Part shown: positions 25,996 to 60,627 of the stretch, piece after piece
How the letters are laid out: every line of letters starts with the position of its first letter
How positions within the stretch are numbered: position 1 is the stretch's first letter
Source: Paenibacillus sp. L3-i20
GTDB lineage: Bacteria > Bacillota > Bacilli > Paenibacillales > Paenibacillaceae
Assembly (NCBI RefSeq): GCF_022180385.2
Contig: NZ_BQME02000001.1
Location: 2,717,636 to 2,781,635 of the forward strand
Reading direction: 5' to 3'
DNA length: 64,000 bases
Translations under genes and position numbers: made by a program
The notes under the pieces: generated by a model
The model's input: only the letters and a program-made list of their open reading frames with translations
What the model was told of the DNA's origin: nothing
Databases searched by the model: none

Positions 25996-26940
<945 letters not shown>

Positions 26941-45850: not shown

Positions 45851-45853
45851 GTT

Positions 45854-46247: not shown

Positions 46248-47258
46248 GTGCGAGGTAGAGTGCGAAAGAAACAAATTATTGTCATTGCGCTCGGCGCTGC
46301 GGGTGCACTTGTTGTTCTGTTGGTACTTTGGATTGGTGCTTCGGCAGTATCAAAGGCCAAGTGGCAAGGGGAGAAAGCAAAGTACGAGCAAGCATTATCT
46401 CAACATGTACAAAATTTGAGCTTATATGAAACGAAGACGCGAGCCGGATACGTGTTAATTGTACCGAAGTCTGCGGGTGATGCGATTGCTGAGACAGATG
46501 TTGAGAAAAGGGCATTGCCTGATTATTTTACGCCGGAGGATGTTATTGCATTACCAGAACAAGTGATAGGTAAAGTGATGAAGCTGAATGGGAAACCAGG
46601 CACAGCTTTGACAAGTGAAATGGTCTACGATCAGGAGCAACTTGATCCTAGTCTCCGCAAGGAGGAAGCACAATATATTCGTCTTCCGATTCGGGTGCAG
46701 CCGCTTGATATTGTAGATATTCGCATTGTTTTCCCGAATGGCGAGGATTATATCGTGTTGTCTAAGAAGAAGCTTGATGATGTAGATGCAGGGAATCAGC
46801 TTTCCTATTTTACAGTAAATGAGGAAGAGAGACAGCTGCTACAATCCGCATTAGTAGATGCGTATACGAACAAAGCAGAACTATATGGCATTCAATACGT
46901 CGAGCCCGAACTACAGCCAAAAGCCGTTGTTACGTATACACCTAATTTGGATGTGATGAAAGTGTTGCGATCGAATCCAAATATTGTAGCCAAAGCTAAG
47001 CTTAGTTTGAATGAAGGACTTCGAAGCGAACTCGATACGAGATTAAGTAAAATTCCTGAAGGATCTAGACAGCGAATTGGTACAGATGCACCAGATGGAG
47101 GGGCTGTTTCGAAGCGTAAGGAAACGATTGAAACATTGCTACCTCCAGCAAGTGAAGTTGCTGCGCCTCCAGTGCAAGAAACGGGAACTGCTCCGGCAGC
47201 GGGAAATGAAGCAGCAGCTACAGGAGACTCAGGATTATTGGAGGGTAATGCACGATGA
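46248..47258 (+). CDS. SAF-domain membrane protein (CpaB/RcpC-like), first gene of the Tad-like operon
   Basis: 336 residues: an N-terminal membrane anchor (about 9-33), a short helix, then a SAF-like domain (about 65-130) with AGYVLIVPKSAGDAIAETDVEKRALPDYF and VIGKVMKLNGKPGTALTSEMV. A beta domain follows, with YIRLPIRVQPLDIVDIRIVFPNGEDYIVL, like CpaB C-terminal parts, and then a Pro/Ala-rich tail. CpaB/RcpC proteins act in assembly of Flp pili; in a Gram-positive it would sit outside the membrane at the base. AGGGGG eight bases before GTG 46248. Its stop overlaps the next start (ATGA). Confidence 0.82.
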   Translation: MRGRVRKKQIIVIALGAAGALVVLLVLWIGASAVSKAKWQGEKAKYEQALSQHVQNLSLYETKTRAGYVLIVPKSAGDAIAETDVEKRALPDYFTPEDVIALPEQVIGKVMKLNGKPGTALTSEMVYDQEQLDPSLRKEEAQYIRLPIRVQPLDIVDIRIVFPNGEDYIVLSKKKLDDVDAGNQLSYFTVNEEERQLLQSALVDAYTNKAELYGIQYVEPELQPKAVVTYTPNLDVMKVLRSNPNIVAKAKLSLNEGLRSELDTRLSKIPEGSRQRIGTDAPDGGAVSKRKETIETLLPPASEVAAPPVQETGTAPAAGNEAAATGDSGLLEGNAR

Positions 47259-47830
47259 ATATCGGCTTTGTAGGTGATTGCGATAAAGTTGATGTGGCAT
47301 TAATGGCGGGTCTGCTGCTCAAGTCCTATCATGCAGACTCTCCGGTAACCATTGTTGCCGACCGACATCGCCACTATCAGTACTTCAAAGATGAAGTGAG
47401 CGGCATGGCGGTGCAACTCGAAGAAGATAGCCATTCGGTAGAGGGTACCGTCATTTATGATTGGCATTCGATGGAGTTGCCACGGAATCGGTTGGACAAG
47501 CTGTATGCGGTGACGACCTATGATAAGCCTTCACTGGAGTTTGCATGTGAATTTGTGAAAAGACATGAAGTGCAAGGTGTAGTCGTATTAGAGTCTGATT
47601 GCTCCATTACACCGAAATATATCCGCTATCTGTTTCCTGATGTAAAGACACTAAGCTGCTTCGATGATCCTCGCAGACGAATGGATTGGGTATTCGATGG
47701 CAGAGTTTCCACGCGTAAGCTTGGAGATGACTTTACCAGCGTTATTGGCGAGCTCGCTCAAGATATATCCGGAATTACACCCGTTGATCTAAAAAAGATG
47801 TGGATATATTTGAAGAAAAGGAGTGCCTGA
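47255..47830 (+). CDS. Unknown 191-aa protein of the Tad-like operon, Rossmann-like
   Basis: Starts inside the stop of the SAF gene. Alternating beta/alpha pattern: MNIGFVGDCDKVDVALMAGLLLKS, SPVTIVADRHRHY, GTVIYDWHS, KLYAVTTYDKPSLEFACEFV, VQGVVVLESDC. The arrangement suggests a ParA/receiver-like fold, but there is no P-loop and no phospho-acceptor signature I trust. Its position between CpaB-like and ParA-like genes is where Tad loci carry TadZ/CpaE. Possibly the split-off N-terminal half of a TadZ. Function unknown. Confidence 0.6.
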   Translation: MNIGFVGDCDKVDVALMAGLLLKSYHADSPVTIVADRHRHYQYFKDEVSGMAVQLEEDSHSVEGTVIYDWHSMELPRNRLDKLYAVTTYDKPSLEFACEFVKRHEVQGVVVLESDCSITPKYIRYLFPDVKTLSCFDDPRRRMDWVFDGRVSTRKLGDDFTSVIGELAQDISGITPVDLKKMWIYLKKRSA

Positions 47831-47831
47831 A

Positions 47832-48668
47832 ATGCTGGTAGCTTTCTGGGGTCCCACGCCGGGACAAACGTGTACGACAAGCAGCATGCTTGCTGTTGCT
47901 GCGATGCTCGCACTCGACTACCCGCTAAAAATAGCGATAACACATCCAGTGCCTAGGGAGACACTTATTGAGCGATCAATGGGACAACTGAGGTCCCAAA
48001 GAGGGATATCGTCAAGCGGTGACTCAGGTGGAATGGATGCGATTCTGCGCCTTGCAGAATGTGAGATGCTCACCCCAACTACATTGCGGGATCATACGGA
48101 GTCTGTTTTAAAGGGGCGACTGGACGTACTTAGAGGTCCAACGATGAATGCGGATGATCGACTGCTAATGGCACTTCCGCAATTGAAAAGCTCAGCATCG
48201 CGTTATTACGATCTGTTCTTTATAGATGTTGCTGCGGGTACAGAAAATCTGGTTACAAAGCAGGTGCTTGCGCAAGCAGATCTGATCGTTGTCACCTTGA
48301 ATCAAAATGTGGAATGGTTGGAGCGATATTTCGCAGATGTGGATAAGGCACAATTCCCGAATAGCAAAAAGAGGAAGTTCTGTGTGAGCGACTTCGAGCC
48401 AAACTCCAAGCTTTCTATGGATCGTATAAAAAAACAATATAAACTTCATTCCTCGGATCTACTTGGGGTGGTACCTCACAATGTTCGTCTAATGGATGCA
48501 CTCAATGACGGCAATCTCCTCGATTTATTGTTGCGCAGCATGGCTGTGAAGAAGCAGATGTTTGTTCATGATGAGAACCTTGCGTTCATTTCGTCCATAC
48601 GAGATATTGGGAAGCTGCTGCTTCGTTCGCTTGATCTTGCGCCTCTAGAGGAGGTGTCATTGGATTAA
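47832..48668 (+). CDS. Divergent ParA/MinD-like (TadZ/CpaE-like) protein without Walker A lysine
   Basis: 278 residues. The N terminus VAFWGPTPGQTCTTSSMLAVAAMLAL has the shape of a MinD deviant Walker A (KGGxGKT), but both lysines are missing (GPTPGQTCT). Later strands YYDLFFIDVAAGTENLVTKQVLAQADLIVVTLNQNV correspond to the ParA 'D.iiiD......' and 'aD.vvvv' segments, and VVPHNVRLMDALNDGNLLD to the C-terminal part. It is probably a non-hydrolysing polar-localisation protein, as some TadZ proteins are. AAAGGAG nine bases before ATG 47832 fixes the start; GTG 47823 overlaps the preceding gene. Confidence 0.72.
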   Translation: MLVAFWGPTPGQTCTTSSMLAVAAMLALDYPLKIAITHPVPRETLIERSMGQLRSQRGISSSGDSGGMDAILRLAECEMLTPTTLRDHTESVLKGRLDVLRGPTMNADDRLLMALPQLKSSASRYYDLFFIDVAAGTENLVTKQVLAQADLIVVTLNQNVEWLERYFADVDKAQFPNSKKRKFCVSDFEPNSKLSMDRIKKQYKLHSSDLLGVVPHNVRLMDALNDGNLLDLLLRSMAVKKQMFVHDENLAFISSIRDIGKLLLRSLDLAPLEEVSLD

Positions 48669-48670
48669 CC

Positions 48671-50527
48671 ATGCTAAATATTATATTGCTTATTGTTATC
48701 GCTGCTGGAATTATGATGGTGCTAATCAGAATTCTTATTACGAATAAGAAGGTTCAAGCGGTTTCCAAAGACGAGAACAGATTTAATCTTATTGATATTA
48801 GAGCTTATATTCGTTCAGCGCTGCAAGAGCTGACATCTACGCGAATGAATGACGGCAACGTGAGTGAAGAAGAGTTTACTAGGCGTAAAGCAAGAAGACA
48901 TGAATTAAGAAAAGCACTTCGAAGCTGTATGCACGGAGACGTTTTTTCCAAACGATTTGTTAAAGCGAATATGAAGGATTTGCTGGAGCAGACGTATGGG
49001 CTTAGCGAAACGACAATTAATTATGTCATGCCATTTGATCGCCCGGATCGATTAACAACACAAGATCAATTTGAAATATTGCTGCATCATTATCAGAAAA
49101 AACATCGTTATGAAGCTTTTAACGTGCTGATGGCGAAGTATAAGCTTGATGGATTGAAAAAGCTGTCTGACGGCTCAGAGGGCTACCGAGTTACAAGTGA
49201 AGAAATACGTGCAGCATTCGCAGCCGAAGGGTTAAGCCTGACAATGTCCGACAAGCTGGATATTATTGTGCAGCGTGTCTATCAATCCTACAAAGGACTT
49301 GGCGTCATAGATGAAATTCGTGATCAGAATATTGACGGCGTCAATGGCGGGACGAGCGGTTTGCCGTCTGATATTGCGCAATCGCTTGATGTAGCGGGAT
49401 ATACTTCAGAAATGAAGGAAGTGCCGAAAGCGCATGATGCGGTTTGGATTTTCTATAAAGGAAAATCGATTCATCTGTCGTTCCTCAGCTTTGGCAGTGA
49501 AATGGAGCTAAAGCGAGTATGTCAAAACATCTATACGTTCGGAAGTCCAGGACAATTAAACGAATCCAATGGATATATGGTCAATGATATGGCTGATGGA
49601 AGTCGGGTAGTTGTTGTGCGACCTAAGATGTCTGAATCATGGGCGTTCTTCGTTCGTAAGTTCGACATTCAGAAGGCAGAGCTAGAAGAGCTGATCAAGG
49701 ACAAAAATGCGGAGCTTGCCGTTGGCATGCTTACGTATCTTGTGAAGGGCGCACGTGTAACTGGCGTTACCGGGCAACAGGGAACAGGGAAAACGACGAT
49801 TCTTATGGCAATCGTCAAACATATATACCCAACCTTAAATTTACGTATTCAAGAGATGGCTTTCGAACTTAGACTCCGCAAAATCTATCCAGAGCGCAAC
49901 ATTCTTTCATTCCGCGAGACACCGACCGTCAGTGGTCAGGATGGATTGGATACACAGAAAAAAACGGACGGTTCCGTCAACATACTAGGTGAAGTTGCTA
50001 CACATCCGATTGCGAGCTGGATGATCCAGATGGCGCAGGTTGCAAGCTTGTTCACCCTATTCACACACCATGCCAAAACCTTTCCGAATTTAATTTATTC
50101 CTTGCGTAACAGCTTGCTGGCTACGGGAGTGTTCACGAACGAAAAGATTGCTGAGAAGCAGGTAGTAGATGTCATTACGTTCAATGTCCATCTGGTGAAG
50201 GACGAAAGAGGCAGACGATACATTGAACGAATTACGGAATGTATTCCAGTCAGCGATTCAACCGCATACCCAAGAGCATATCGGGAGCATGACGATACCA
50301 ATGGGAAACTGGAAGCGTTCATGGATACGATGACGGAATATTTCGAGCGTTCCACAGATCGCAAAACGTTTGAATACCGCAATATAGTGGAATGGCAAGA
50401 CGGCTGTTATGTAGCTACTGCGGAACTTTCGGAGCGTAATCGGAAAGAGATGCTGCTGCACATGAATGATAAAGATGCCGAGGAATTCAAACAGTTTCTT
50501 CACGTTCATTGGGGGGACGCTTCATGA
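48671..50527 (+). CDS. CpaF/TadA-like secretion ATPase with N-terminal membrane anchor
   Basis: 618 residues. Residues 3-24 form a hydrophobic helix, unusual for this cytoplasmic ATPase family. A long N-terminal domain follows (about 30-340; HEYEA-like regions, 'DRPDRLTTQDQFEILLHHYQ'). The type II/IV secretion ATPase core contains Walker A GVTGQQGTGKTT (about 365-376), a Walker B-like NILGEVATHPIASW and the T.HA motif FTHHAKTFPN. It would power pilin polymerisation or secretion with the membrane protein encoded next. The gene starts two bases after the ParA-like stop and ends with an ATGA overlap. Confidence 0.88.
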   Translation: MLNIILLIVIAAGIMMVLIRILITNKKVQAVSKDENRFNLIDIRAYIRSALQELTSTRMNDGNVSEEEFTRRKARRHELRKALRSCMHGDVFSKRFVKANMKDLLEQTYGLSETTINYVMPFDRPDRLTTQDQFEILLHHYQKKHRYEAFNVLMAKYKLDGLKKLSDGSEGYRVTSEEIRAAFAAEGLSLTMSDKLDIIVQRVYQSYKGLGVIDEIRDQNIDGVNGGTSGLPSDIAQSLDVAGYTSEMKEVPKAHDAVWIFYKGKSIHLSFLSFGSEMELKRVCQNIYTFGSPGQLNESNGYMVNDMADGSRVVVVRPKMSESWAFFVRKFDIQKAELEELIKDKNAELAVGMLTYLVKGARVTGVTGQQGTGKTTILMAIVKHIYPTLNLRIQEMAFELRLRKIYPERNILSFRETPTVSGQDGLDTQKKTDGSVNILGEVATHPIASWMIQMAQVASLFTLFTHHAKTFPNLIYSLRNSLLATGVFTNEKIAEKQVVDVITFNVHLVKDERGRRYIERITECIPVSDSTAYPRAYREHDDTNGKLEAFMDTMTEYFERSTDRKTFEYRNIVEWQDGCYVATAELSERNRKEMLLHMNDKDAEEFKQFLHVHWGDAS

Positions 50528-52620
50528 ACCCGGCTGTTCTCATCTTAATGGTTGTTGTATTTCTTATTCTGTTGTTGGCACTGCTCGTAGTCATTCTATT
50601 AGCAGCACAATCAAGAATTGATCCCGTTGCGTACAAGGAAATGCAGAAGCTTCGGCGATTATTGCCGATGCAGCGCAAAGGCTCGTCCTTCGCTGCTACG
50701 GCTGAGCGGCTTTACCCCGTACTGCGAACGATCCCGATTGTTCGTTCTATGTTGCTAAACAACCGTTACAAATTAATAAAGTTGTACGCGGATGATGAAA
50801 GTTTAGTCCGATCACAATCGGCTGTACTAACGCTCACTATCTGTGGTGTAGTAATCGGTCTTTGGTTGTTGGCATTGCTGCTTGTATCATCGTGGGTTTT
50901 ACGAATCTCAATTATATTGGCAGCGGTATATATCGGTACGGTTGTAGCAGATATGTTGATAGGCAGACGAGAGAAGCGGCTGCTCTATGGCTTATCAGGG
51001 TTATTGCTTGATCTCAGGCATGAATATCATCAGACACATATGGTCATCGAATCGTTAGAGCGTGCTTCCGAGCGATCGAGTCCACTAGTTGCGGCACATG
51101 CGCAGCGGCTGGCGGAAATATTATCCTCCATAGACCCTGAGGAAGAACTGCGCAAATATTACGATGATGCACCTAATCGTTATACGAAGTTATTGGCAGG
51201 GATAAGTCACCTCATTCTGGAGAATGGGGACGGCAGCTCCAAGAAGGAGAAGAAAGAACAGGGCGGTGAACGCTCCCTCTATCTTCATGCTTTATCGAAA
51301 ATAAATGAAGAAATTCGTATGGACATATTACGCAGAGAGAAGCTGGATGCCCAGCTTGCAGGTATCGTCTTCGTTGCTTTTAGTCCGCTCTTCTTTATCG
51401 AGCCGCTTCGTGCATGGGGGGAGAGCAGTTTTCCTACTATGGGAGATTATTACGACTCCAGATGGGGCATGTATTCGCTTATTCTGTTGTATGTCCTTAT
51501 GGGGGTTAGCTTCATTGGACTTCGCTTAGTGCGGGGACTGGATGGAGCAGCGGGACAAGGTGAAGGCCCAGGAACTCTGCTTCAAAAGCTGCTGCGAAAG
51601 CCAATGATACGTCGATGGGCGGATCGATTGACGCCGCCAGATTATTCTACTAAGCATCACCGAGCAAAAACTCAGATTGCGGATGCCAACGATTCGATGT
51701 CGGTCAGAGAGCTATATATGAGAAAGTGGCTGCTGGCGGGAAGTGCATTTGTCATTTTTATTGTCATTCAAGTGTACATGCATGATGCAGCACGTACGTT
51801 ACTAGCACATCCCACTAATCCTACTCAGGGTACTGCGCCTGTTACGAGAAGTGACTATCAAGAGGCTGAGCGATTCGAGTTCAAAGGTGTTGCTATTCGT
51901 GAAGCAATACGGCTACAAATAGCAGACGTTGAGCTAATGGCATATATGCAGCGGCAGATGGACGGGAAATCTTTTGTAGCGAGAGGACCTGAGCTTGATA
52001 AATTTGTAACCGAGCTTGCTGCGGCAGTTAAGAGCTATAGAAGTGAGTCATATCGCTGGTATGAACTCATTATTGCTTTCGGCGTCGCATTCCTAGTTTA
52101 TCGTATTCCGAACATCCTATTGTTCTTCCGAAGAAGTATGCGGAAGTGGGAGATGCAAAATGAATCGGATGGCTTCACATCCATTGCATCGATATTATCA
52201 GGGCTTCCACGCATTAGCGTTATAGAAATATTAGATTGGATGCATCGGTATAGCAGAATTTTCGAGCCGCAGCTGCTTCGCTGCCTTATCGATTATGAGG
52301 CGGGTCCCTTGCAGGCACTTGAGCGGCTGAAGGAGGAGGTTAAGTTCTTTCCCTTCGAGCGGATCATTGATCGGCTGCATGTGTCTGCAGAGCTTATCCC
52401 TATTAAGAAGGCATTCGATGATATGGAGCAGGAGCGAGCATTCGAACTAGAGCAGAGAAAGATGCAATACGAAGGGATGATCAGTCGGAAAGCAGCGATT
52501 GGCAAGTCAATCGGCTTCCTGCCGCTGCAAGCAACTTTCGCACTATATCTGATGGTTCCATTCGCATATATGGCAGTTTCACAGCTTGGTAATCTGTCTG
52601 GCGTAACAAATGGACTTTAG
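50524..52620 (+). CDS. Long TadB/TadC-like platform protein
   Basis: 698 residues with about eight hydrophobic segments (near residues 4-30, 95-145 as two helices, 270-290, 310-335, 402-420, 515-535 and 670-690). Two T2SSF-like helical regions are recognisable: LYGLSGLLLDLRHEYHQTH with HMVIESLERAS (about 155-185) and SIASILSGLPRISVIEILDWM (about 555-575) leading to ELEQRKMQYEGMISRKAAIGKS before the last helices. The length and duplication suggest that one chain replaces the usual TadB and TadC. Start ATG 50524 overlaps the CpaF stop (ATGA), with GGGGGG before it. Confidence 0.78.
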   Translation: MNPAVLILMVVVFLILLLALLVVILLAAQSRIDPVAYKEMQKLRRLLPMQRKGSSFAATAERLYPVLRTIPIVRSMLLNNRYKLIKLYADDESLVRSQSAVLTLTICGVVIGLWLLALLLVSSWVLRISIILAAVYIGTVVADMLIGRREKRLLYGLSGLLLDLRHEYHQTHMVIESLERASERSSPLVAAHAQRLAEILSSIDPEEELRKYYDDAPNRYTKLLAGISHLILENGDGSSKKEKKEQGGERSLYLHALSKINEEIRMDILRREKLDAQLAGIVFVAFSPLFFIEPLRAWGESSFPTMGDYYDSRWGMYSLILLYVLMGVSFIGLRLVRGLDGAAGQGEGPGTLLQKLLRKPMIRRWADRLTPPDYSTKHHRAKTQIADANDSMSVRELYMRKWLLAGSAFVIFIVIQVYMHDAARTLLAHPTNPTQGTAPVTRSDYQEAERFEFKGVAIREAIRLQIADVELMAYMQRQMDGKSFVARGPELDKFVTELAAAVKSYRSESYRWYELIIAFGVAFLVYRIPNILLFFRRSMRKWEMQNESDGFTSIASILSGLPRISVIEILDWMHRYSRIFEPQLLRCLIDYEAGPLQALERLKEEVKFFPFERIIDRLHVSAELIPIKKAFDDMEQERAFELEQRKMQYEGMISRKAAIGKSIGFLPLQATFALYLMVPFAYMAVSQLGNLSGVTNGL

Positions 52621-52637
52621 AAGAGGAGGGATACGGG

Positions 52638-53150
52638 ATGGACAATATCTCAAAATTTCTGCAATGGTCCATTGGGCTGCTCATTACGTTATCCATCATC
52701 AGTATGGGTCTTATGTTATGGAACAAGGCGAAGCCGATTGGTGTCGCTGCCCAGCAGCAGGCGGCTGAGCAAGCGAAGCTAATGGCGGAGGCACAGTTCT
52801 CGGCTTACGATAACCAGTTGCTGAGCGGTTCGCAATTGATAACCGCTTATCGAAGATATTATATGCTGGATGCCTTTCACATTTATGTACAGACAAATCA
52901 GGGCGGCATTAAACAATTTGGGATGACACCAAGCGCACCAGCAGGAGGGGTAGGCCCATCAGCCTGCCCGCCGTTTAGCTATACCAATGGAACGTTAGGT
53001 GGAGGAACATCGAGTAGCTGTGCCGTACTAGAGGCGGACATTAGCAATGTGGCGAATACGAATTACGTCCCACCGCAGGCAAAGTTTAGAACTACGGTGT
53101 TAAAGGACGGCAATGACAGGATTGCTGGCATCTACTTCAAGATGCAGTAA
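52638..53150 (+). CDS. Pseudopilin-like single-pass protein A
   Basis: 170 residues: N-terminal helix (about 9-30, QWSIGLLITLSIISMGLML) followed directly by an amphipathic alanine/glutamine-rich helix and a globular part with two cysteines (SACPPF and SSCAVLEA). The shape is that of a pilin or pseudopilin, but no type III leader (G-F-T or G-x4-EY) is present. It is paralogous to the next gene. GAGGAGGG precedes ATG 52638. Likely a structural subunit of the appendage (inference from position and shape). Confidence 0.7.
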   Translation: MDNISKFLQWSIGLLITLSIISMGLMLWNKAKPIGVAAQQQAAEQAKLMAEAQFSAYDNQLLSGSQLITAYRRYYMLDAFHIYVQTNQGGIKQFGMTPSAPAGGVGPSACPPFSYTNGTLGGGTSSSCAVLEADISNVANTNYVPPQAKFRTTVLKDGNDRIAGIYFKMQ

Positions 53151-53185
53151 TAAATAAAACAAATTTTTTAGGAGGCGAAGAGGTA

Positions 53186-53689
53186 ATGGAAAATATCTCG
53201 GCAGGTTTAAAATGGGCGATCGGATTGATCGTCACGCTGCTTATTGTTGCGGCGGGTATTAGTGTGTATATGTTGGCTAATGGGAACTTCAAGAAGGCGC
53301 AAGATCAAGCAACATCTCAATCGTCATTATTAGATGATTCAGAATTTACGATGTATGATCGTACGAATGTGTCAGGGACTGATGTGTTAGATACGGTGAA
53401 GAAATTTGCAGCACGTCCAGAGTTTACGGTATCGGTGGACACTGGTTTGTCTAATGCTTATTATCCCGAAGGCTTTGATAGCTGTTACTCAGTACCAGCT
53501 GCTACAGCTACTACGGATGTTACGGCAGATGCTACTTGTGGGGGAACAGGTTCAGCTACTATTCCTTATGGAACGATGACAAATCAAGATGCTTTAGAGT
53601 ATGTTAACCCGACAGCACGTTTTGCATCTGCAATCTTCCGCGATGCTAATGCAGAGGTTCGCCTTATTCGGTTCATACAAGTTCCATAA
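53186..53689 (+). CDS. Pseudopilin-like single-pass protein B
   Basis: 167 residues. The N terminus MENISAGLKWAIGLIVTLLI matches protein A (MDNISKFLQWSIGLLITLSI), so the two arose by duplication. After the helix comes an Ala/Gln/Ser-rich linker and a globular domain with two cysteines (DSCYSV and ATCGGTG) at positions comparable to those of protein A, probably one disulfide. TTAGGAGG upstream of ATG 53186 is the strongest ribosome binding site of the operon, consistent with a major subunit. A hairpin without T-tract follows. Confidence 0.7.
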   Translation: MENISAGLKWAIGLIVTLLIVAAGISVYMLANGNFKKAQDQATSQSSLLDDSEFTMYDRTNVSGTDVLDTVKKFAARPEFTVSVDTGLSNAYYPEGFDSCYSVPAATATTDVTADATCGGTGSATIPYGTMTNQDALEYVNPTARFASAIFRDANAEVRLIRFIQVP

Positions 53690-53704
53690 TTCTTTAACAG
53701 CAGC

Positions 53705-53726
53705 CCTGCGGCCTAACAGCCGCAGG
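53705..53726 (+). promoter_or_regulatory. GC-rich hairpin after the pseudopilin pair
   Basis: CCTGCGGC / GCCGCAGG with a six-base loop and no T-run. The position right after the two paralogs fits a 3'-end stabiliser that keeps the pilin part of the message more abundant than the rest of the operon. Confidence 0.55.
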
Positions 53727-53759
53727 ACTACATCATCCCGCAAGAAACGAGGAACGCGC

Positions 53760-54125
53760 ATGGACATCGCACGCTCTTTCTTAATCACTATATTCGTATG
53801 GATCCTATTCGCGGCAGGAGCAATGATGTACCTAAAGGGCGAGCAGGGCATGAACGAGCTATCTGCTGATTGGAGCAAGCCGTTGCTTTTTGAGGGAGCA
53901 TACACTGGCACGGTGGATTTGACTCAAATGGCTGGCGAGCAAGTGCTTGGACTTGTGACCTATGCGAAAGAAGGCGAATTCATCCTCACATTGGATGGAT
54001 TATTGATCAGCCCCTCCACATCGCTAGATTCTATAGATTTCCGCGAAGTTTCGAACAAAACCTATACGCTAACTTTTACACGAAATGCAGCAGGCAAGGT
54101 TATCTCCATTACAGCAGCACGTTAG
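53760..54125 (+). CDS. Single-pass 121-aa protein of the Tad-like operon
   Basis: N-terminal helix (about 5-24, SFLITIFVWILFAAGAMMYL), then a soluble, beta-rich domain. No known family recognised. The frame is open back to 53601, but GAGGAA before ATG 53760 marks the start. Size and layout resemble a minor pseudopilin. It continues the operon, with 14 bases to the next gene. Confidence 0.65.
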   Translation: MDIARSFLITIFVWILFAAGAMMYLKGEQGMNELSADWSKPLLFEGAYTGTVDLTQMAGEQVLGLVTYAKEGEFILTLDGLLISPSTSLDSIDFREVSNKTYTLTFTRNAAGKVISITAAR

Positions 54126-54139
54126 GCGGTGAATTCAGT

Positions 54140-54682
54140 ATGGTAGATGCGTTTAAATCCATCGTCGTACTTGTACTAATAATTATTGGTTTCATCGCTT
54201 ATCCTGCCTTGCGAATTGCAGATCGAAGCGATGATATATCACGGCAGGCAGCCGCAGCGGCTGTGACGGAGTTCGTTGACACAACAAGAGGAAAAGGCTA
54301 TATCGCTGTTTCCGATTATGAAACATTACTAGGTAAGCTTAACGGTACAGGTGTTGTGTTCGATATCCAGCTGGAGCATTACCGTAAAACGATACAACCC
54401 GTTTATACCGACCCCAATAACACCTCGACTTTTCAAAACCGATTTACAGTCGACTATATCGGCACTTTCACCAAAGACATACTCGATAAATTATATCCCT
54501 ATACAGTCGTCGCTGATGAGCACAGACGATATAAGATGCATGCTGGCGACTTAATGCAAGTAAGAGTTGAATCTTTAGGTTCAACACTTGGCGGTCGTTT
54601 GCAGGGTATGTTGTATGGGAAAATGGCTGACATTCCACTTATGGCATCATACGGAGGGATGGTACGAAGTGAAGCCCCTTAG
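54140..54682 (+). CDS. Single-pass 180-aa pseudopilin-like protein of the Tad-like operon
   Basis: Helix at about 5-25 (FKSIVVLVLIIIGFIAYPAL) with polar flanks, then ISRQAAAAAVTEFVDTTRGKGYI, an Ala-rich helix reminiscent of TadE-type minor pilins, and a globular part. Overlaps the next gene by 14 bases, so the two are translationally coupled. Function inferred from layout only. Confidence 0.65.
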   Translation: MVDAFKSIVVLVLIIIGFIAYPALRIADRSDDISRQAAAAAVTEFVDTTRGKGYIAVSDYETLLGKLNGTGVVFDIQLEHYRKTIQPVYTDPNNTSTFQNRFTVDYIGTFTKDILDKLYPYTVVADEHRRYKMHAGDLMQVRVESLGSTLGGRLQGMLYGKMADIPLMASYGGMVRSEAP

Positions 54683-55640
54683 CATTCTTATGTTTTTTCT
54701 CATTATTGCAATACCACTCACCTTTATGCATGACGCAAGGCAGAACTATCTAGACAACGGAGAGCAGAAGTATAAGCAGTACAGCGATCACTTTCAAGCC
54801 GCCGTTGATGATACGGCTTATTATTTGTCCCAATTGGAAGCGCAGCAGAGTGGATTGAATGTTCATTACGCAAGTGCCAAGGAGCTGGAATTTGGCGAAG
54901 AGGCATTAGCTGTATTTTATAATAATTTGTCCATGAAATTTGGTATCGGAAACAACGGGGTAGAACGGCAAAATCTGATGCTTCACATACCTGCACTCGT
55001 CTTTCTCAAATATGACGGATACGTGCTTATTACATTAGAAGACGCTGAAGGCAAGGAAATGAAGCCGATCATCTGGCCGAAACGCCCTTATACATATAAG
55101 CTGTCGAACGGAAATGTCGTATATTTTACACTCGATGATCATGCTGTTGTGTACCAAAAGTCTACTAATCAGTTTGTGGAAGGAAAACATAACGAGCTTG
55201 TTAGCGAGTTAGGTTCAGGACTCATCCGACTGACTGACATTAACGTATTCAGACAAATTAGGCAGAACACAATTGCTGCCTCCTTAGAGAAGGACTTAGG
55301 CGGTGCGGTTAACCGTCATATGGAGCTAATGAAGCGGATGGGATTGAATGTTCAGTTCAGTTTGCCGCGAGGATTGGATGAGCAGGCCTATCAAAATGTA
55401 GGTTTGATCGCATTTATGCAAGGTTATCCTCTTCCTGGCGGGGAACGTCTGGATGCCTTTTCTTATGGCGGAGGTGCTGTCGTTCAGAGAACTGCGCTTA
55501 TAGGTGTGTATGAGCCTGCTCCGAGACAATTCACCGCTTATCCCGAGGCTTGCGTGCCTGTGGGACGTGACTCTATTGAAGTATTTTATGATCCAGAGGA
55601 AGCGGCAAGTAAAGGATATTTTATAAGAGATTGTTCATAA
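54669..55640 (+). CDS. Single-pass 323-aa protein of the Tad-like operon
   Basis: A short N-terminal helix (SILMFFLIIAIPLTFMHDAR) is followed by a helical stretch (YSDHFQAAVDDTAYYLSQLEAQQSG) and a large extracytoplasmic domain. The alanine- and glutamine-containing helix after the membrane segment is again pilin-like. I do not recognise a family. GTG 54669, with GGAGGG before it, lies inside the preceding gene; the upstream open frame to 54588 only shadows that gene. Confidence 0.65.
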   Translation: MKPLSILMFFLIIAIPLTFMHDARQNYLDNGEQKYKQYSDHFQAAVDDTAYYLSQLEAQQSGLNVHYASAKELEFGEEALAVFYNNLSMKFGIGNNGVERQNLMLHIPALVFLKYDGYVLITLEDAEGKEMKPIIWPKRPYTYKLSNGNVVYFTLDDHAVVYQKSTNQFVEGKHNELVSELGSGLIRLTDINVFRQIRQNTIAASLEKDLGGAVNRHMELMKRMGLNVQFSLPRGLDEQAYQNVGLIAFMQGYPLPGGERLDAFSYGGGAVVQRTALIGVYEPAPRQFTAYPEACVPVGRDSIEVFYDPEEAASKGYFIRDCS

Positions 55641-55658
55641 AGATGGGAGGGATTCGTG

Positions 55659-56798
55659 ATGGTATTGCTGCGCAACAAGCTTCTATTAGCACTTGCTAGT
55701 TTGCTGATCGTTATGGTGTTCAGTGGTGTACACGCATCTGCTGCTATTCCGATTGGGGTAGTTGTTAATGGACTAAAAGTAACGTTTCCAGATACGCAGC
55801 CTTATTTGGACGCTAATAAGCGTACGATGGTTCCGATTCGCTTCGTTACGGAGCAGCTCGGTGCGACCTTGGATTGGCAAGGTGGAGGCAAGATGAAAAT
55901 TACATATGGAAAGACAAGTATTAGCTTGAAGCAGAAGGCAACAGAGGCTGTTGTGAATGGAAAAGCTTTGAAGCTTGAAACACCAGCTATCCAACTTAAA
56001 GGCAGGACGATGGTAGGTCTCCGCTTCGTAAGTGAAGCGCTTGGTACGAAGGTTACTTGGGATAGTGAGGCACAAACCGTTCACATTATGGATGCCGTAT
56101 TTGAGAAGAGCAAGCCTTTGCTAGACGCATGGGGAAGACTGATTCGAACGGACAAACAGCCCGGCAATGCAGGCGATTGGGCTTATACGCTCCAAGATAT
56201 TCCGAACATTGCGTATACGATGGACTATCGGAAGCTTTTGGATGAAGGCAGCTTGAGAACGACAGCATCGGAGCTATTTAAGGACGCTAACCTCAATCGA
56301 GAAAATTTGGACAAATGGGCGAATCGGATCAAACGTTATTATGATCTCGTTTTTTCGGTGGACTATCAATTGATAGATTCTTCAACTTGGTGGCAATCAT
56401 TCCAACCTTATATGAATAACAGCAGCATTGACAATACGACGCGCATTCAATATGCGGAATGGGTGAAGAAGAATAATATTCGCTTAGAAGGTTGGGCAGA
56501 ACCAGAGCCATCTATGACGTATAAGCAGGATGGAAAATATATGATGCGCACGAAAGTGAGATTTAGAGTATTGGAATCGGATGCCCTCTATGGCACTTTG
56601 CTAGATTCCTTCCAAGCATCTTATGAGATGAAGCTAAAAACGGGTGTTTGGTATTCCGGTTATGCGGATATTGTACTCTCCACCAACACATCGGGGGACT
56701 CATGGCCATATTACGGCGTCGATTATCATGACCATCTGTTCTTCACTCCAGTAGGGAATATTCAAGAGGAAGTAGGGGGTTCTATTGAAACAAATTAG
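55659..56798 (+). CDS. Secreted protein with copper-amine-oxidase N-terminal-type domain
   Basis: 379 residues. Signal peptide (about 1-29, ending SASAA-like HASAA). Then a Cu_amine_oxidN1 domain (about 33-140): VVVNGLKVTFPDTQPYLDANKRTMVPIRFVTEQLGATLDW-type pattern and the repeated TMVGLRFVSEALGTKVTWD with AVNGKAL-like hairpins. This domain is a cell-surface module in Paenibacillaceae and not a sign of oxidase activity. The C-terminal 240 residues are unrecognised. GGGAGG eight bases before ATG 55659; its stop overlaps the next start by 14 bases. Confidence 0.78.
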   Translation: MVLLRNKLLLALASLLIVMVFSGVHASAAIPIGVVVNGLKVTFPDTQPYLDANKRTMVPIRFVTEQLGATLDWQGGGKMKITYGKTSISLKQKATEAVVNGKALKLETPAIQLKGRTMVGLRFVSEALGTKVTWDSEAQTVHIMDAVFEKSKPLLDAWGRLIRTDKQPGNAGDWAYTLQDIPNIAYTMDYRKLLDEGSLRTTASELFKDANLNRENLDKWANRIKRYYDLVFSVDYQLIDSSTWWQSFQPYMNNSSIDNTTRIQYAEWVKKNNIRLEGWAEPEPSMTYKQDGKYMMRTKVRFRVLESDALYGTLLDSFQASYEMKLKTGVWYSGYADIVLSTNTSGDSWPYYGVDYHDHLFFTPVGNIQEEVGGSIETN

Positions 56799-59700
56799 AA
56801 AAGTGATGTTGTTATTAGTAATGTTAGCAGTAATCGCTAGTCCTCTTTCTCCACTTGCGGATGCACGAGTATCTATAAGTTTCCTGCCGTCGGGTGATTT
56901 GGAATTTACCGTTGTGGAATCATCACGTGCTTCCTCAGGTCTATATAAAGTGGTTGGCTGGGTTGCCAGCAAAAAAGCAGGCTGTGCAGATCCGAGACTC
57001 GAAGTGTGGGATCAACAGTGCAACCCGAAATTAAGTGGAGGTCCAACAGCAGAGTTTCGCACGTTCATAGCAGGAGAGCCAGTAACGATCAGAGGCAGAT
57101 CCTATACGACTTATACAGTGCCGAAAGTTGAGGTTGAGAAGCTGCTTCAAAAGGATGGATTTTCCGATGTGAGGGAGGGTCAAAACCTATATTTCTCTCC
57201 TATCTTTAAGCTGTATAAAAAAGATGCTGCTGGAGCCCTTTCGCCTCTTGGCGGAGAATTCAAAACGCTTCGGGATGTTATTGGAGCACAGGAATGGAAG
57301 GTGAAGAGCGGATTCCGCCAATACTATGATATTCCCGTTAAGTTCGCTAGTAAAAACCCGCTATATGTTGTTTATAAGGATGAGGATGGAGGCATATTGA
57401 CGCCTCCGAAGCTGATCGGTGAATATACAGCGGGTGCTTACCCTGGGCCGATCGTATTGGATCGTGTCCTTAATCGGAATGGGACCACACTGGAGCTAAC
57501 AGGATCTTGGATAGAACGCATAGGAGATGCAGAACCTCGTAGCCGGAGATTTGAGGTGGATGGCTCCATTACGACACGTAATGTGACAGTAGCTTATGGA
57601 GGAACAACGATCGTAGCCATCTATGATGGAGATGGAGCGAGAGTAGACGCTAAGTTTGTTGATGAGAGCGGAAAGAAGCTTATTGATGATGTACACGTCG
57701 GTAATTATCGTACTGGCGCTAAATCTACTTATAAATACGAAGAGAAGGTAGTAGTTGGAGAACATGTATATAGACTTGTTAAGAGCTATCAAACGAATAG
57801 AAGCGATAAAAATCGACGGTTCCTTGAGCAAACATCAGGTAAGGGGATGCTGCAACGACTGGTGGACGTCGAACAAGGAGGACATTTTTTCTGGGGTGTA
57901 TATCGGAAAACCGATGACCCTGCCGTAGCTGTAGATCTCTCACTTCATATCCCACATCATGTAGGAAGTACGCAGACAAATGTTACGGGAACGTTGGAAG
58001 TACTAGCGAATACGAATACTGAGCTTAAGGAATATGAAATTATTGGATTATCGAATGCTTATTACGTCAATGAAAAGCAGAAAAAAGGAACATTAAGCGG
58101 CAAAACTGGCAATCTAAGCATAGCGATTAATGTACCAGTTAATAGTGCAACCAAGACTATCACTGCGAAAATTAAGGTGTATAACAAAGAAGGAGAATTT
58201 GCGGAGGATAGCATCAATGAGACAATTGTAAAAAATGCGAGCGGCGGATCAAGTGACATGGATACTTCTCATAAAACAGTTCTTGAATCTGTAAATAGAG
58301 GCAGCGAGGAATTCGATGTATCTAAGGGCATACCTAGCAGCGAGAGCTTGTATGCGAATGTAACAAATGCGAAGGAATATTTGAATGAATTCCAATATAA
58401 ATCGGTGAATGGCAAGAAAACGTACAGTATTACCGTTAGGAAGAGTTATACGCCATTTTGGTACGAAACGGTAAATGTATGGGGGACGTGCGAAGAGAAA
58501 GATAGCAAAGGCAAAGTAACAAGAGAATACTCTTGTATCGTAGACACAGATGAGGAAAGACGAACAGGCTCCGCTCAAGTTTATAGTGAGACGTATGCCA
58601 TTGAAAGACCATTTAATTACTACGTAACAGATAAATTCGCATTGTATGGCATTGACCATGCTCGTATTAATAATGCCTCAATTTCTGGTGGTGGGGTGAA
58701 TATTAATCCAAGCGGATATTCACCGCCAACTAGAGATGTATGGCATGGCAGCTCAGAGTCAGACCATGTTAAAGACGCAAAAATTATTAGCAGCATCGTA
58801 ACTTTGCCCAGTGAGGAATATTATAGAGGAAGCAAGTCGGAATCTTCGTTTTATTCGGGATTTGAGTCTACGGCTGAAGCCCAAGTCGGTAATGTCTATG
58901 TAAGGAATGACAGAATTATTGTAAACAGTACAACCGTCATGAGCGATGCGTGGACAGAAGAGGAAGCTCCAGCACCTGGGGAAGTTCCTAAAGCGAAAAT
59001 AATAAACAACAACGTACTATACGTTCCTTCTATTCAAATTCCGGCTGCAACTAAAAATGCGGTATATCCTTCAACCGGAAATTTGAAGTACCGCTTGTTG
59101 GAAGGACTGTTCAGTCCTCCTGCTAAGGTAGATGTAACATTAGGACCTAATGCGGTAACCGTCCATACACCAGTTGTGAACGATTCGGTTATACCAGATT
59201 CGAACAGACCATTCGATCAGCGGATGGATACGTATATGAATGTGACGAAACCAATACTCGTTTTGGATCGACCATTCACGGTAGATTTTGACGAGACGGC
59301 GCCTCATTTGAGCATAAAAGGATATGGAAATAGAGATTACAGCGCATATATCGATAAGAAGAGAATTAAATTCCCATTCGATGTGTTCGAGGGAACAGGA
59401 ACGACGTTTTATCCAGCGTTAACGTGGATCGATATGCCTGTTGGCACACCGAGTATGACCTTCAAGCTGCCAACATGGGTAAGTGAAGGCGATTATGAGG
59501 TAACAACTCAAGCTTGGGCTATTAATAGACAGCCTGGCGAAACATGCCAAGCTGATTTGAACGGCAACCGTTCCATTCAGTGTGCTGAACGAAAAATAGA
59601 AGTAAGCGTGACAGGACGAATTCATAGTTTCAAAATTAATGATATAGGAGATTTCCGATTCGAAAATGTGTTCCGTCAATCTGCTGGATCACTTGCTCAT

Positions 59701-60627
59701 ACTGGAGTTGCTTACGTATCAGGCAATAAGGATGCTAATGGAGATCTAATACCGGGAATAGGCAGTAATTTGGTTCTGCCAGTGAGAAAAGGTTCTCATC
59801 CAACACAGAAAAATACTGTACCGCATAATGGTTATCCGATTCAGTACACAGTGAAGAGTATTGGCGACTATTGGGACAAGGGTGATGGTATCCGAGTTGA
59901 GCCTACCTTCTACTTCGTCTCCAAGGATGGCAAGCAGCGTCAAGTGGTGGATCTCTATTACGATACTGCCGGCGACAAGGATAAGATGATCAAGGTTGGA
60001 TCGAATGAGGATAAGCAACTCTATACAAGATCCTATGTTCTTCCTGCGCCAGAGCGGAATATTGTTGAGGCGGAGCTACGGTTCGCAGCAGAGTTTGAGC
60101 ATAACGAGATTATGACGCCAGCTCAGCGTCTACAGACGCCTTGGACAGCTTTTTACAAACAATATAAGGTTCGTGAGACAGCTATCGCCAAAGGGTATGA
60201 CATAAATATATTGTCGTACAAGGCTAGGACGCTCGTAGGACCAACGGTGTTGCCAACGGGTATTGATGCAACTGTGGCGAGACGAAGTGTACAGAAGTGG
60301 TACGGTGAATATAACGTTCCGATTGCTCCTTACATCCTGCCGAAGGGAACGAAGATTAACGATTTGTTGGAGAAGTACAAAGGAGTTCTAACAGGTCGTG
60401 AAAGTGAGTATCTCAAGGGCGGTTACATCTTAGTAAACTTCCAAATCTATATGGTTCGAGGCAATGATGAGAATCGTATGCTCGGCTATAAGACTACGAA
60501 TACCGATATGTGGAAGATTGAAGGTCAAACGACGAATTCAGGCGGATTTGCCTTCGAAAGCGGAGATATCATCCTGTTCGAATCCGATTTCTCAGCTCGT
60601 AATGACTTTGAAAGTGCAGGCAGATAA
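56785..60627 (+). CDS. Large secreted beta-rich protein (1280 aa), possible DUF5704-type adhesin
   Basis: A signal peptide (about 1-27, ending ADA) begins at TTG 56785 after AGTAGGGGG. The rest is Thr/Val/Tyr-rich beta sequence with repeated modules, among them a MucBP-like piece (VVYKDEDGGILTPPKLIG) and another (VDAKFVDESGKKLIDDVHVG). No anchor (LPxTG, SLH) is visible. It resembles proteins that annotation pipelines call DUF5704, but I cannot verify that. Being the largest product of the operon and coupled to its last gene, it is a candidate tip adhesin or secreted cargo. A terminator follows. Confidence 0.72.
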   Translation: MKQIRKVMLLLVMLAVIASPLSPLADARVSISFLPSGDLEFTVVESSRASSGLYKVVGWVASKKAGCADPRLEVWDQQCNPKLSGGPTAEFRTFIAGEPVTIRGRSYTTYTVPKVEVEKLLQKDGFSDVREGQNLYFSPIFKLYKKDAAGALSPLGGEFKTLRDVIGAQEWKVKSGFRQYYDIPVKFASKNPLYVVYKDEDGGILTPPKLIGEYTAGAYPGPIVLDRVLNRNGTTLELTGSWIERIGDAEPRSRRFEVDGSITTRNVTVAYGGTTIVAIYDGDGARVDAKFVDESGKKLIDDVHVGNYRTGAKSTYKYEEKVVVGEHVYRLVKSYQTNRSDKNRRFLEQTSGKGMLQRLVDVEQGGHFFWGVYRKTDDPAVAVDLSLHIPHHVGSTQTNVTGTLEVLANTNTELKEYEIIGLSNAYYVNEKQKKGTLSGKTGNLSIAINVPVNSATKTITAKIKVYNKEGEFAEDSINETIVKNASGGSSDMDTSHKTVLESVNRGSEEFDVSKGIPSSESLYANVTNAKEYLNEFQYKSVNGKKTYSITVRKSYTPFWYETVNVWGTCEEKDSKGKVTREYSCIVDTDEERRTGSAQVYSETYAIERPFNYYVTDKFALYGIDHARINNASISGGGVNINPSGYSPPTRDVWHGSSESDHVKDAKIISSIVTLPSEEYYRGSKSESSFYSGFESTAEAQVGNVYVRNDRIIVNSTTVMSDAWTEEEAPAPGEVPKAKIINNNVLYVPSIQIPAATKNAVYPSTGNLKYRLLEGLFSPPAKVDVTLGPNAVTVHTPVVNDSVIPDSNRPFDQRMDTYMNVTKPILVLDRPFTVDFDETAPHLSIKGYGNRDYSAYIDKKRIKFPFDVFEGTGTTFYPALTWIDMPVGTPSMTFKLPTWVSEGDYEVTTQAWAINRQPGETCQADLNGNRSIQCAERKIEVSVTGRIHSFKINDIGDFRFENVFRQSAGSLAHTGVAYVSGNKDANGDLIPGIGSNLVLPVRKGSHPTQKNTVPHNGYPIQYTVKSIGDYWDKGDGIRVEPTFYFVSKDGKQRQVVDLYYDTAGDKDKMIKVGSNEDKQLYTRSYVLPAPERNIVEAELRFAAEFEHNEIMTPAQRLQTPWTAFYKQYKVRETAIAKGYDINILSYKARTLVGPTVLPTGIDATVARRSVQKWYGEYNVPIAPYILPKGTKINDLLEKYKGVLTGRESEYLKGGYILVNFQIYMVRGNDENRMLGYKTTNTDMWKIEGQTTNSGGFAFESGDIILFESDFSARNDFESAGR

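What the first reader, a model, noticed from the sequence alone, without database searches (positions are those of the whole stretch)
46248..60627. Divergent Tad/type IVc-like surface machine in a Gram-positive, with an unusual part list
Eleven genes are packed with overlaps (ATGA, or 14 bases) in one direction. Recognisable Tad-type parts are a SAF/CpaB-like protein, a TadZ-like protein, a CpaF ATPase and a TadB/C-like platform. The rest is not standard: no Flp pilin with a GxxxxEY leader, no prepilin peptidase, no secretin (expected for a monoderm), and instead two paralogous single-pass proteins, three more single-pass proteins and two large secreted proteins. It may be a previously uncharacterised appendage or secretion system of Paenibacillaceae.
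Basis: partly seen in the sequence, partly recalled or inferred. Interest (0 to 1): 0.88.

Follow-up and report, generated by a model that had tools for sequence, protein, structure and literature searches.

The report
Tad-like pilus machine beside toxin genes
This bacterium carries a compact gene set for a distant relative of the Tad hair-like surface machine, built from unusual pilin-like subunits, and relatives of it keep turning up next to machines that send toxins or DNA into neighbouring cells, which suggests it helps cells make contact first.

Summary
The cluster is real: twelve tightly packed genes (46248-60627), not eleven; six core parts stand in the same order in 109 of 126 loci compared, and never in another order. 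The motor ATPase is CpaF-like; CpaB/SAF- and TadZ-like parts are present; the platform cannot be recognised by profile. It is not competence pili. The two paralogous single-pass proteins belong to one pilin-like family whose conserved motif starts at the initiator Met (M-x-N-A-x-K-A-L) and has no GxxxxE site. Models show a long N-terminal helix and a beta head, but no significant fold match. The pilins are therefore uncleaved or use a 7-residue, non-canonical leader. Just downstream, past a terminator-like hairpin, lies a giant SLH-HINT-WHH polymorphic toxin with immunity genes. The window's sister clade is linked to type VII secretion in 8 of 8 loci; other relatives sit on T4SS-bearing elements; many stand alone. 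Tad beside T7SS (Garrett 2024) and tad-like loci without prepilin motifs (Imam 2011) are in print. I read it as a new variant of the Tad machine that probably serves cell contact; that function is inferred, not shown.

The parts
46248..47258 (+). SAF/CpaB(RcpC)-like membrane-anchored protein
   Evidence: TIGR03177 E 0.026 for this protein; 10 of 14 aligned members match TIGR03177, best 7.9e-13; FlgA match in PDB by profile
47255..47830 (+). w2, small conserved protein of unknown role, ATGA overlap with SAF gene
   Evidence: no Pfam hit
47832..48668 (+). TadZ/ParA-like protein with a degenerate P-loop (motif judged by eye)
   Evidence: BcsQ match E 9e-6; no PDB match by profile
48671..50527 (+). 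CpaF/TadA-like motor ATPase
   Evidence: TIGR03819 E 7.9e-10; PDB profile matches at E 1e-5 or better are CpaF only, E 3e-14
50524..52620 (+). large multi-pass protein, candidate platform (698 aa from ATG; one gene where Tad has TadB and TadC)
   Evidence: position and length in relatives; homology to T2SSF/PilC not detectable
52638..53150 (+). pilin-like subunit A (MDNISKFLQW...), AGGAGG 8 bases upstream of ATG
   Evidence: family by iterated HMM, N-terminus
53186..53689 (+). pilin-like subunit B (MENISAGLKW...), paralogue of A (29% identical)
   Evidence: AF2 model: helix 3-55 then beta strands, pLDDT 81.8
53760..54125 (+). w8, small single-pass protein, candidate minor pilin (inferred)
54140..54682 (+). 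w9, single-pass protein conserved from Paenibacillaceae to Clostridia, candidate minor pilin (inferred)
   Evidence: alignment A4; AF2 model: helix 2-52 plus beta sheet, pLDDT 90.4
54669..55640 (+). w10, single-pass protein with large outer domain, candidate tip or minor pilin (inferred); GTG start, 14-base overlap
   Evidence: alignment A3
55659..56798 (+). secreted stalk-domain (PF07833) protein; an SLH-domain protein takes this place in several relatives
56785..60627 (+). large secreted DUF5704 (PF18964) protein, TTG start, 14-base overlap
60641..60675 (+). 11-bp perfect inverted repeat (60641-60651 / 60665-60675, loop 13) followed by TTTATATT: terminator-like, not listed by the consensus scan
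   Evidence: read from the sequence; scan does not list it
60724..64000 (+). start of giant SLH-PT-HINT-WHH polymorphic toxin gene (open frame from 60658, likely start 60724; runs past the window to about 67314); probably its own transcription unit

Best explanation
The cluster encodes a Tad-derived, CpaF-powered machine that assembles a surface filament or pseudopilus in a Gram-positive cell. The ATPase (48671) drives a membrane platform (50524) to extract single-pass pilin-like subunits (52638, 53186; minor ones 53760, 54140, 54669) into a filament; the SAF/CpaB-like and TadZ-like proteins align and place it; secreted stalk/SLH and DUF5704 proteins anchor or decorate it at the wall. The subunits lack the canonical prepilin site, so they are used uncleaved or after loss of a very short leader. 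Its likely job is to make contact with other cells: here beside a wall-anchored polymorphic nuclease toxin, in relatives beside T7SS toxin exporters or T4SS DNA-transfer genes. Shown here: gene set, conservation, CpaF relationship, subunit N-termini, linkage counts. Inferred: filament assembly, wall anchoring, contact function.
For: Six core parts in order in 109 of 126 loci. CpaF-only PDB matches. One pilin-like family of 370 proteins in 124 of 126 loci, the two without being cut-short stretches; M1 55/55, N3 53/55, L8 54/55; N3 in 249 of 370 and MEN in 174 of 370, against 136 and 9 of 2287 other ORFs. Two models with a long N-terminal helix and beta head. Linkage: 9 of 23 EssC genes above cut-off within 20 kb of a Tad-like ATPase (0.22 expected), 5 of 5 PrgI genes above cut-off within 40 kb (0.11 expected). 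Window+G097 are sister to 8 loci, all T7SS-linked; T7SS linkage in three tree branches. Polymorphic toxin next door with variable C-terminus between two strains. Analogue: Myxococcus Kil Tad pilus plus T3SS* kills on contact (PMC12075869, abstract).
Against: The window itself has no T7SS or T4SS nearby; its genome's only EssC above cut-off is beside the other copy and PrgI is absent. The toxin gene is set off by a terminator-like hairpin. No significant fold match of either subunit model to any solved structure. Platform homology not detectable. Linkages are not independent: PrgI cases lie in one clade, EssC cases in three. Of 124 tree tips, 79 carry no translocator, ICE, plasmid or relaxase-like label in the flanks held (43 Clostridia, 18 core only, 18 DUF5704 only), against 14 T7SS, 8 T4SS, 16 with only an ICE-type marker gene and 7 plasmid or relaxase-like. 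The earlier mating test of pBsph was negative (PMC4363355).
Confidence: 0.52

Rival explanations
1. An ordinary adhesion, biofilm or surface-sensing Tad-type pilus; neighbouring toxin, T7SS and T4SS genes are hitchhikers of variable genome islands.
For: 79 of 124 tree tips have no translocator, ICE, plasmid or relaxase-like label in the flanks held; many Paenibacillaceae copies share one chromosomal neighbourhood by the lengths of flanking ORFs (by eye), as for a resident appendage. Garrett et al. 2024 leave coincidence open (PMC11217815).
Against: 9 of 23 EssC and 5 of 5 PrgI linked against about 0.2 and 0.1 expected, on several tree branches.
Confidence: 0.3
2. A protein secretion system (short pseudopilus piston, as in T2SS) that exports the DUF5704, stalk/SLH or giant toxin proteins rather than building an external pilus.
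For: Large secreted proteins are encoded with it; DUF5704 lies within 40 kb of a Tad-like ATPase in 24 of 57 copies, 1.15 expected; 69 of 124 loci have just two members of the subunit family.
Against: The secreted proteins look Sec-exported (hydrophobic N-terminal signals, by eye) and 33 of 57 DUF5704 copies are not near such an ATPase; a monoderm needs no outer-membrane exit.
Confidence: 0.18
3. Canonical type IV processing after all: the genome's prepilin peptidase removes a 7-residue leader, cutting at A/G7-L8, so only the missing E5 is unusual.
For: Of 237 unique M-x-N subunits, 214 have A or G at residue 7, 224 have L at 8 and 151 have K at 6; all 32 Clostridia genomes tested have an A24 peptidase hit, 6 of them without a PilC-type hit above cut-off; the window genome has one too.
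Against: E/D at +5 in 0 of 237; the window's own subunit A has F at residue 7; residues 2-4 of the would-be leader are conserved, which leaders need not be (recalled); 26 of 32 Clostridia genomes have a PilC-type hit that can account for the peptidase.
Confidence: 0.35
4. The machine itself moves DNA (a Tad-type conjugation apparatus on plasmids and ICEs).
For: Same operon near relaxase-like, T4CP, TubZ or ParM genes on plasmids.
Against: Such elements carry their own T4SS: annotated PrgI, DUF87 and type IV secretion proteins on the pBsph-like plasmid, PrgI and a VirB4-like gene on the ICE, AAA_10 match in 4 of 5 plasmids, one above cut-off; no relaxase or T4CP recognised near the window copy.
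Confidence: 0.05

Closest known systems
Tad/type IVc pilus (CpaF/TadA, CpaB/RcpC, CpaE/TadZ, TadB, TadC, Flp)
   Same: CpaF-family ATPase, SAF/CpaB-like and TadZ-like parts, pilin-like single-pass subunits in one cluster
   Different: no Flp pilin with GxxxxEY, no TadV in the cluster, one large unrecognisable platform gene, subunits with a conserved motif at the initiator Met, wall proteins with DUF5704, SLH or stalk domains
Tad genes beside T7SSg and T7SSh (Garrett, Higginson, Palmer 2024, PMC11217815; abstract, passages and sections 13-14 read)
   Same: Tad genes next to EssC/WXG100 clusters, T7SSg in Paenibacillus; fits the window's sister clade and two further branches here (subtype not assigned by me)
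   Different: the paper calls it a Tad pilus set and leaves the link open; the parts I read do not treat the subunits, T4SS, ICE or plasmid copies, or copies without T7SS
Gram-positive tad-like loci without prepilin motifs (Imam et al. 2011, PMC3244431; section 12 and passages read)
   Same: tadA, tadZ and rcpC homologues and no protein with an apparent prepilin motif
   Different: those Clostridium and Desulfitobacterium loci contain tadV; their relation to this family was not tested here
Myxococcus Kil system (Tad pilus plus needleless T3SS*; PMC12075869, abstract and section headings seen)
   Same: a Tad-type pilus working with a second, secretion-like machine on contact with another cell
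   Different: diderm, with Flp major pilin KilP and prepilin peptidase KilA; partner is T3SS-like, not T7SS or T4SS
Polymorphic toxin systems (surface stem, HINT pre-toxin, nuclease tip, SUKH/YezG immunity)
   Same: the gene after the cluster has SLH, PT-HINT and WHH nuclease domains and SUKH and YezG-like neighbours
   Different: sits behind a Tad-like cluster, with no T7SS beside it

Membership tests
Tad/type IVc pilus | CpaF/TadA secretion ATPase | tested here: met
   PDB profile matches at E 1e-5 or better are CpaF only, E 3e-14; TIGR03819 E 7.9e-10, well below its curated cut-off
Tad/type IVc pilus | CpaB/RcpC | tested here: met
   10 of 14 aligned members match TIGR03177, best 7.9e-13; the window protein alone only E 0.026
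Tad/type IVc pilus | TadZ/CpaE | tested here: inconclusive
   ParA/BcsQ-type match E 9e-6 only; no PDB match by profile
Tad/type IVc pilus | TadB and TadC platform (T2SSF fold) | tested here: inconclusive
   in 21 relatives no NCBIfam hit, four single chance-level Pfam hits, no PDB hit; hhalign probability 0.3% to PilC
Tad/type IVc pilus | Flp pilin with GxxxxEY leader site | tested here: not met
   0 of 237 unique subunits have E/D at +5 after residue 7; 2 of 237 hold any [GA]x4[ED] near the N-terminus
Tad/type IVc pilus | prepilin peptidase TadV in the locus | tested here: not met
   no A24 hit among the window cluster's proteins; the genome's one hit with the A24_N model lies in a separate T4P-like locus
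Type IV filament superfamily | pilin fold: long N-terminal helix plus beta head | tested here: inconclusive
   architecture present in two models, no significant fold match
Competence (Com) pili | ComGA-type ATPase and pilins with a prepilin site | tested here: not met
   ComGA model only E 0.086, CpaF matches far better; no prepilin site in the subunits
T7SS | EssC ATPase and WXG100 proteins in the locus | tested here: not met
   EssC above cut-off only beside the second copy, 0.6 Mb away; no WXG100 recognised among the window flanks read
T4SS / conjugative element | VirB4/PrgI, T4CP and relaxase | tested here: not met
   PrgI absent from the window genome; no such gene recognised in the flanks read
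Polymorphic toxin system (adjacent gene) | conserved stem, HINT pre-toxin, variable toxin tip, immunity gene | tested here: met
   SLH, PT-HINT, WHH; SUKH and YezG-like; 46% identity over 11-1520, HINT region 67%, no alignment beyond residue 2051 with G097
Tad/type IVc pilus | external filament seen or purified | not testable with these tools
   needs microscopy

The most novel reading that the evidence does not exclude
This is a distinct class of type IV-like filament whose pilins are made without a leader and need no prepilin peptidase, and which Gram-positive bacteria use as a general contact or docking module for whichever translocator they carry: T7SS toxins, T4SS DNA transfer, or wall-anchored polymorphic toxins. 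It would be the monoderm counterpart of the Myxococcus Kil arrangement and would supply an external pilus to some Gram-positive conjugation systems.
Probability: 0.22. Interest if true: 0.9.

Novelty: new variant of a known kind. Interest (0 to 1): 0.66.

Why it matters
Two open questions become testable. First, Garrett et al. 2024 could not say whether Tad genes beside T7SSg/h are there by chance; here EssC lies near this machine about forty times more often than random placement would give (9 of 23 against 0.22), on three tree branches, and the pairing extends to T4SS elements. Second, Gram-positive conjugation and T7SS killing need cell contact but lack an agreed external appendage (recalled); this machine is a candidate. 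The subunits, with a conserved motif at the initiator Met and no prepilin site, would be missed by searches built on the prepilin motif, as in Imam et al. 2011, so such filaments may be under-counted in Paenibacillaceae and uncultured Clostridia.

Tried and rejected
Conjugation apparatus proper: attractive from plasmid neighbours, but such elements carry their own T4SS genes (one of the five plasmids, NC_013792.1, gave no AAA_10 match). Orphan prepilin peptidase: rejected for the window genome, where PilB, PilT, PilC, PilM and pilin-like genes surround it (L040, named by eye). Genome-wide absence of the peptidase as proof of leaderless pilins: failed, 32 of 32 Clostridia genomes have a hit. 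In 15 of 16 stretches fetched around it the PilD query found it (not in L219), with no PilB, PilC or PilT hit within the flanks held; one stretch (L216) has a pilin-query hit on a 417-aa ORF and two (L215, L217) an ORF with a prepilin-like motif. 26 of 32 genomes have a PilC-type hit elsewhere. Fold searches gave nothing significant. PDB profile searches of subunits, w9, w10, platform and TadZ-like protein gave no meaningful match. A first control for the N-terminal motif was contaminated by unlabelled family members and was redone. Viral contigs: no relative by patterns from this one protein. Consensus promoter and terminator scan: no more promoters than shuffles, and it missed the hairpin at 60641. 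No paper in the held library mentions DUF5704; Tad, conjugation, Gram-positive, relaxase and plasmid together: none.

Rows and doubles: the 126 loci are 40 unnamed ones picked by me from the strong matches for long flanks, the window, the second own copy, 4 plasmids and 80 named loci (the best 80 of 477). Linkage tests used 38 of the 106 genomes with strong matches; one PrgI hit below cut-off (G097, another contig) and EssC hits below cut-off (mostly in FtsK-sized frames) were left out; DUF5704 rows that split one gene were merged, 60 rows to 57.
Full report
WHAT IS THERE. The cluster 46248-60627 is one-directional and compact. Gaps and overlaps from the sequence: SAF/w2 -4, w2/TadZ 1, TadZ/ATPase 2, ATPase/platform -4, platform/pilA 17, pilA/pilB 35, pilB/w8 70, w8/w9 14, w9/w10 -14, w10/stalk 18, stalk/DUF5704 -14. 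That is twelve genes. The plus-strand terminator-like sites listed all fall inside genes, but that scan also missed two hairpins that I see in the sequence: one upstream (around 45807-45855, followed by T runs) and one just after DUF5704 (11-bp perfect stem 60641-60651/60665-60675, loop 13, then TTTATATT). An operon from w1 to DUF5704 is likely; co-transcription was not tested.

WHICH PARTS ARE TAD. The ATPase profile of 12 relatives matches three distinct PDB sequences at E 1e-5 or better, all CpaF. NCBIfam TIGR03819 (TadA family) hits at 7.9e-10, far below its cut-off. The SAF protein matches CpaB in 10 of 14 members of its alignment. The TadZ-like protein matches a ParA-type model only. The 698-aa platform candidate is unrecognisable: no NCBIfam hit, four single chance-level Pfam hits among 21 relatives, none in PDB, and hhalign probability 0.3% to classical PilC. 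The last two genes are a stalk-domain PF07833 protein and a DUF5704 PF18964 protein. In the four plasmid neighbourhoods first read and in G139 an SLH-domain protein precedes the DUF5704 gene instead.

THE SUBUNITS. The two paralogues at 52638 and 53186 belong to one family. An iterated HMM from the second collected 370 of 518 candidate small single-pass ORFs, in 124 of 126 loci; the two loci without one are cut-short stretches. In the 55-sequence alignment the only invariant column is Met1; N3 is in 53 and L8 in 54. Clostridia members often begin MENASKAL, ICE-type Paenibacillaceae members MSNAQKAL, others MNNASSAL, the window MENISAGL and MDNISKFL. In the whole family N3 is present in 249 of 370 and MEN in 174 of 370, against 136 and 9 of 2287 other ORFs of the same loci. 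Of the 249 N3 proteins, 207 have a Shine-Dalgarno match, 222 have no alternative start before an upstream in-frame stop, and 124 have five or fewer sense codons upstream of the start. So in most no longer leader is encoded. None of 237 unique ones has E/D at the position a cut after residue 7 would make +5, yet A or G stands at residue 7 in 214 of 237, so a 7-residue leader cannot be excluded. The AF2 model of the 53186 protein (pLDDT 81.8) has helix 3-55 and then beta strands; that of w9 (pLDDT 90.4) helix 2-52 and a beta sheet. This is the layout of type IV pilins (recalled), but neither model has a significant Foldseek match and the VIA-align rows are unrelated proteins, so the fold is inconclusive.

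PEPTIDASE. The window genome has one hit to the A24 N-terminal model, inside a locus whose neighbours look like PilB, PilT, PilC, PilM and pilins (L040, by eye). All 32 Clostridia genomes checked have an A24 peptidase hit; 26 of 32 have a PilC-type hit above cut-off, 6 do not. Around the peptidase itself, 15 of 16 stretches show it without PilB, PilC or PilT hits in the flanks. Whether the subunits need a peptidase is undecided.

DISTRIBUTION. In 197 genomes of the family, 106 have a strong match by my count of the table (best E at most 1e-70), some with more than one copy; in 398 genomes across the phylum only 5, all of this family, at E 1e-60 or better (the Clostridia may count as another phylum in this taxonomy, recalled). 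tblastn found 25 plasmid records with the ATPase, 24 of them covering at least 80% of it.

NEIGHBOURS. The core order recurs in several settings. (i) Stand-alone copies, many Paenibacillaceae ones at a shared chromosomal place by flanking ORF lengths; in G040 those flanking genes look like a keto-acid dehydrogenase cluster, thymidylate synthase and dihydrofolate reductase by their first residues (not profile-tested). (ii) ICE type: in G078, Relaxase PF03432, T4CP PF02534, PrgI PF12666 and a TraG-like VirB4 lie about 23-33 kb downstream. (iii) Plasmids, three of the four first read with annotated replication-relaxation, T4CP, TubZ/FtsZ or ParM genes near (not); the pBsph-like plasmid NZ_CP014644.1 also has annotated PrgI, DUF87 and type IV secretion proteins, and 4 of 5 plasmids have an AAA_10 match, one above cut-off. 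With a pBsph-like plasmid, p1593, in the donor, the element IME8 moved at about 2 x 10^-6 per donor and the p1593 replicon gene was found in the transconjugants (PMC13239906, section 3.3); an earlier mating test of pBsph was negative, and that paper already noted a 'pilus assembly ATPase' on it (PMC4363355, passages). (iv) T7SS: in G139 an EssC-type FtsK ATPase, YukD, kinase-like, VWA and RHS genes lie between the core and DUF5704; in the window genome's own second copy (38% identical ATPase) M23 peptidase, FHA-EssC, YukD-like and WXG100 genes follow.

LINKAGE TEST. In 38 genomes with 48 Tad-like ATPase loci (list typed), 9 of 23 EssC genes above cut-off lie within 20 kb of one (0.22 expected at random positions, 0 of 20000 draws as high); 5 of 5 PrgI genes above cut-off (one further hit below cut-off is on another contig) within 40 kb (0.11 expected); and 24 of 57 DUF5704 copies within 40 kb (1.15 expected). 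These are not independent events. In the ATPase tree (124 tips; rooted by me on the 38% clade) the window and G097 are sister, support 1.0, to eight loci that are all T7SS-linked; this clade of ten groups, support 1.0, with 43 Clostridia loci (whose own node has support 0.49). T7SS linkage appears in three branches, T4SS/ICE linkage mainly in one clade, plasmids on at least three branches, some weakly supported. Labels in the tree: 14 T7SS, 8 T4SS, 16 ICE-type marker gene only, 7 plasmid or relaxase-like, 18 DUF5704 only, 18 core only, 43 Clostridia core only. Flanks differ (10 kb each side at most for named loci, 5 kb up and up to 35 kb down for the chosen ones), so absence of a label is weak. 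Loss of T7SS in the window pair, or gain in its sisters, cannot be told apart.

THE TOXIN. Directly downstream, past the hairpin, is an open frame of 2218 codons (L036:2293-8949; likely start at window 60724) with three SLH stretches, PT-HINT and a C-terminal WHH nuclease domain, followed by a SUKH and two YezG-like immunity-type genes. The G097 counterpart is 46% identical over residues 11-1520 and 67% over the HINT region, with nothing aligned beyond: the pattern of a polymorphic toxin. It is adjacent in both loci of the window's pair (2 of 2) but probably transcribed apart.

MECHANISM. I commit to a Tad-derived filament machine used for cell contact (0.52). Shown: parts, conservation, CpaF kinship, unusual subunit N-termini, linkage. 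Inferred: assembly, anchoring by stalk/SLH/DUF5704 proteins, contact. The closest working analogue is the Myxococcus Kil Tad pilus that needs a T3SS-like partner to kill on contact (PMC12075869, abstract).

NOVELTY. Prior art: Garrett et al. 2024 report Tad gene sets always beside T7SSg and T7SSh and call the link unclear (PMC11217815, abstract, passages and sections 13-14); Imam et al. [quoted passage not shown] What my searches of the held library did not show (listings, of which I opened few papers) is the subunit family with its motif at Met1, a stated pairing of such a machine with T4SS elements in Gram-positives beyond the 'pilus assembly ATPase' remark, or the polymorphic-toxin neighbour. 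Hence a new variant of a known kind.

Noticed in passing
L039:335-19939 (G000:C1:2128335-2147939): Second copy of the machine in the same genome, 38% identical ATPase, followed by an M23 peptidase, FHA-EssC, YukD-like and WXG100 genes: a Tad-like plus T7SS island.
   Followed up: partly
L039:4241-6637: Four tandem pilin-like genes whose first 45 residues are identical; possible dosage or variation array.
   Followed up: no
L089/L090 (G139), L087/L088 (G120): RHS or WXG-headed giant proteins with immunity-like neighbours lie among Tad-like core, T7SS and DUF5704 genes; repeated toxin heads suggest a cassette array.
   Followed up: partly
L032-L035, L041-L044: MOB-suite (PLSDB) calls all 25 plasmids with the ATPase match non-mobilizable, although most of the five that I read carry relaxase-like, T4CP or T4SS genes, and a pBsph-like relative is called conjugative in print.
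   Followed up: partly
38 genomes: DUF5704 is found in 35 of 38 genomes, 33 of 57 copies not near a Tad-like ATPase; it may have a wider surface role.
   Followed up: no
L204-L218: In uncultured Clostridia the prepilin peptidase gene stands without PilB/PilC hits in the stretches read, often in a run with genes of about 352 and 188 aa.
   Followed up: no
L193 (Paenibacillus sp. P25): ORFs of the ATPase, platform and DUF5704 genes look shortened or in pieces: a decayed or mis-assembled copy.
   Followed up: no
window 25996-26940: Collagen-like GAT/GxT repeat protein with a globular end, resembling BclA-type exosporium proteins (recalled, not tested).
   Followed up: no
window 36228-37382 and 39399-41642: Glycosyltransferase plus TPR-like proteins (one with two glycosyltransferase-like heads) near each other; possible spore or surface glycosylation (from sequence by eye only).
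   Followed up: no
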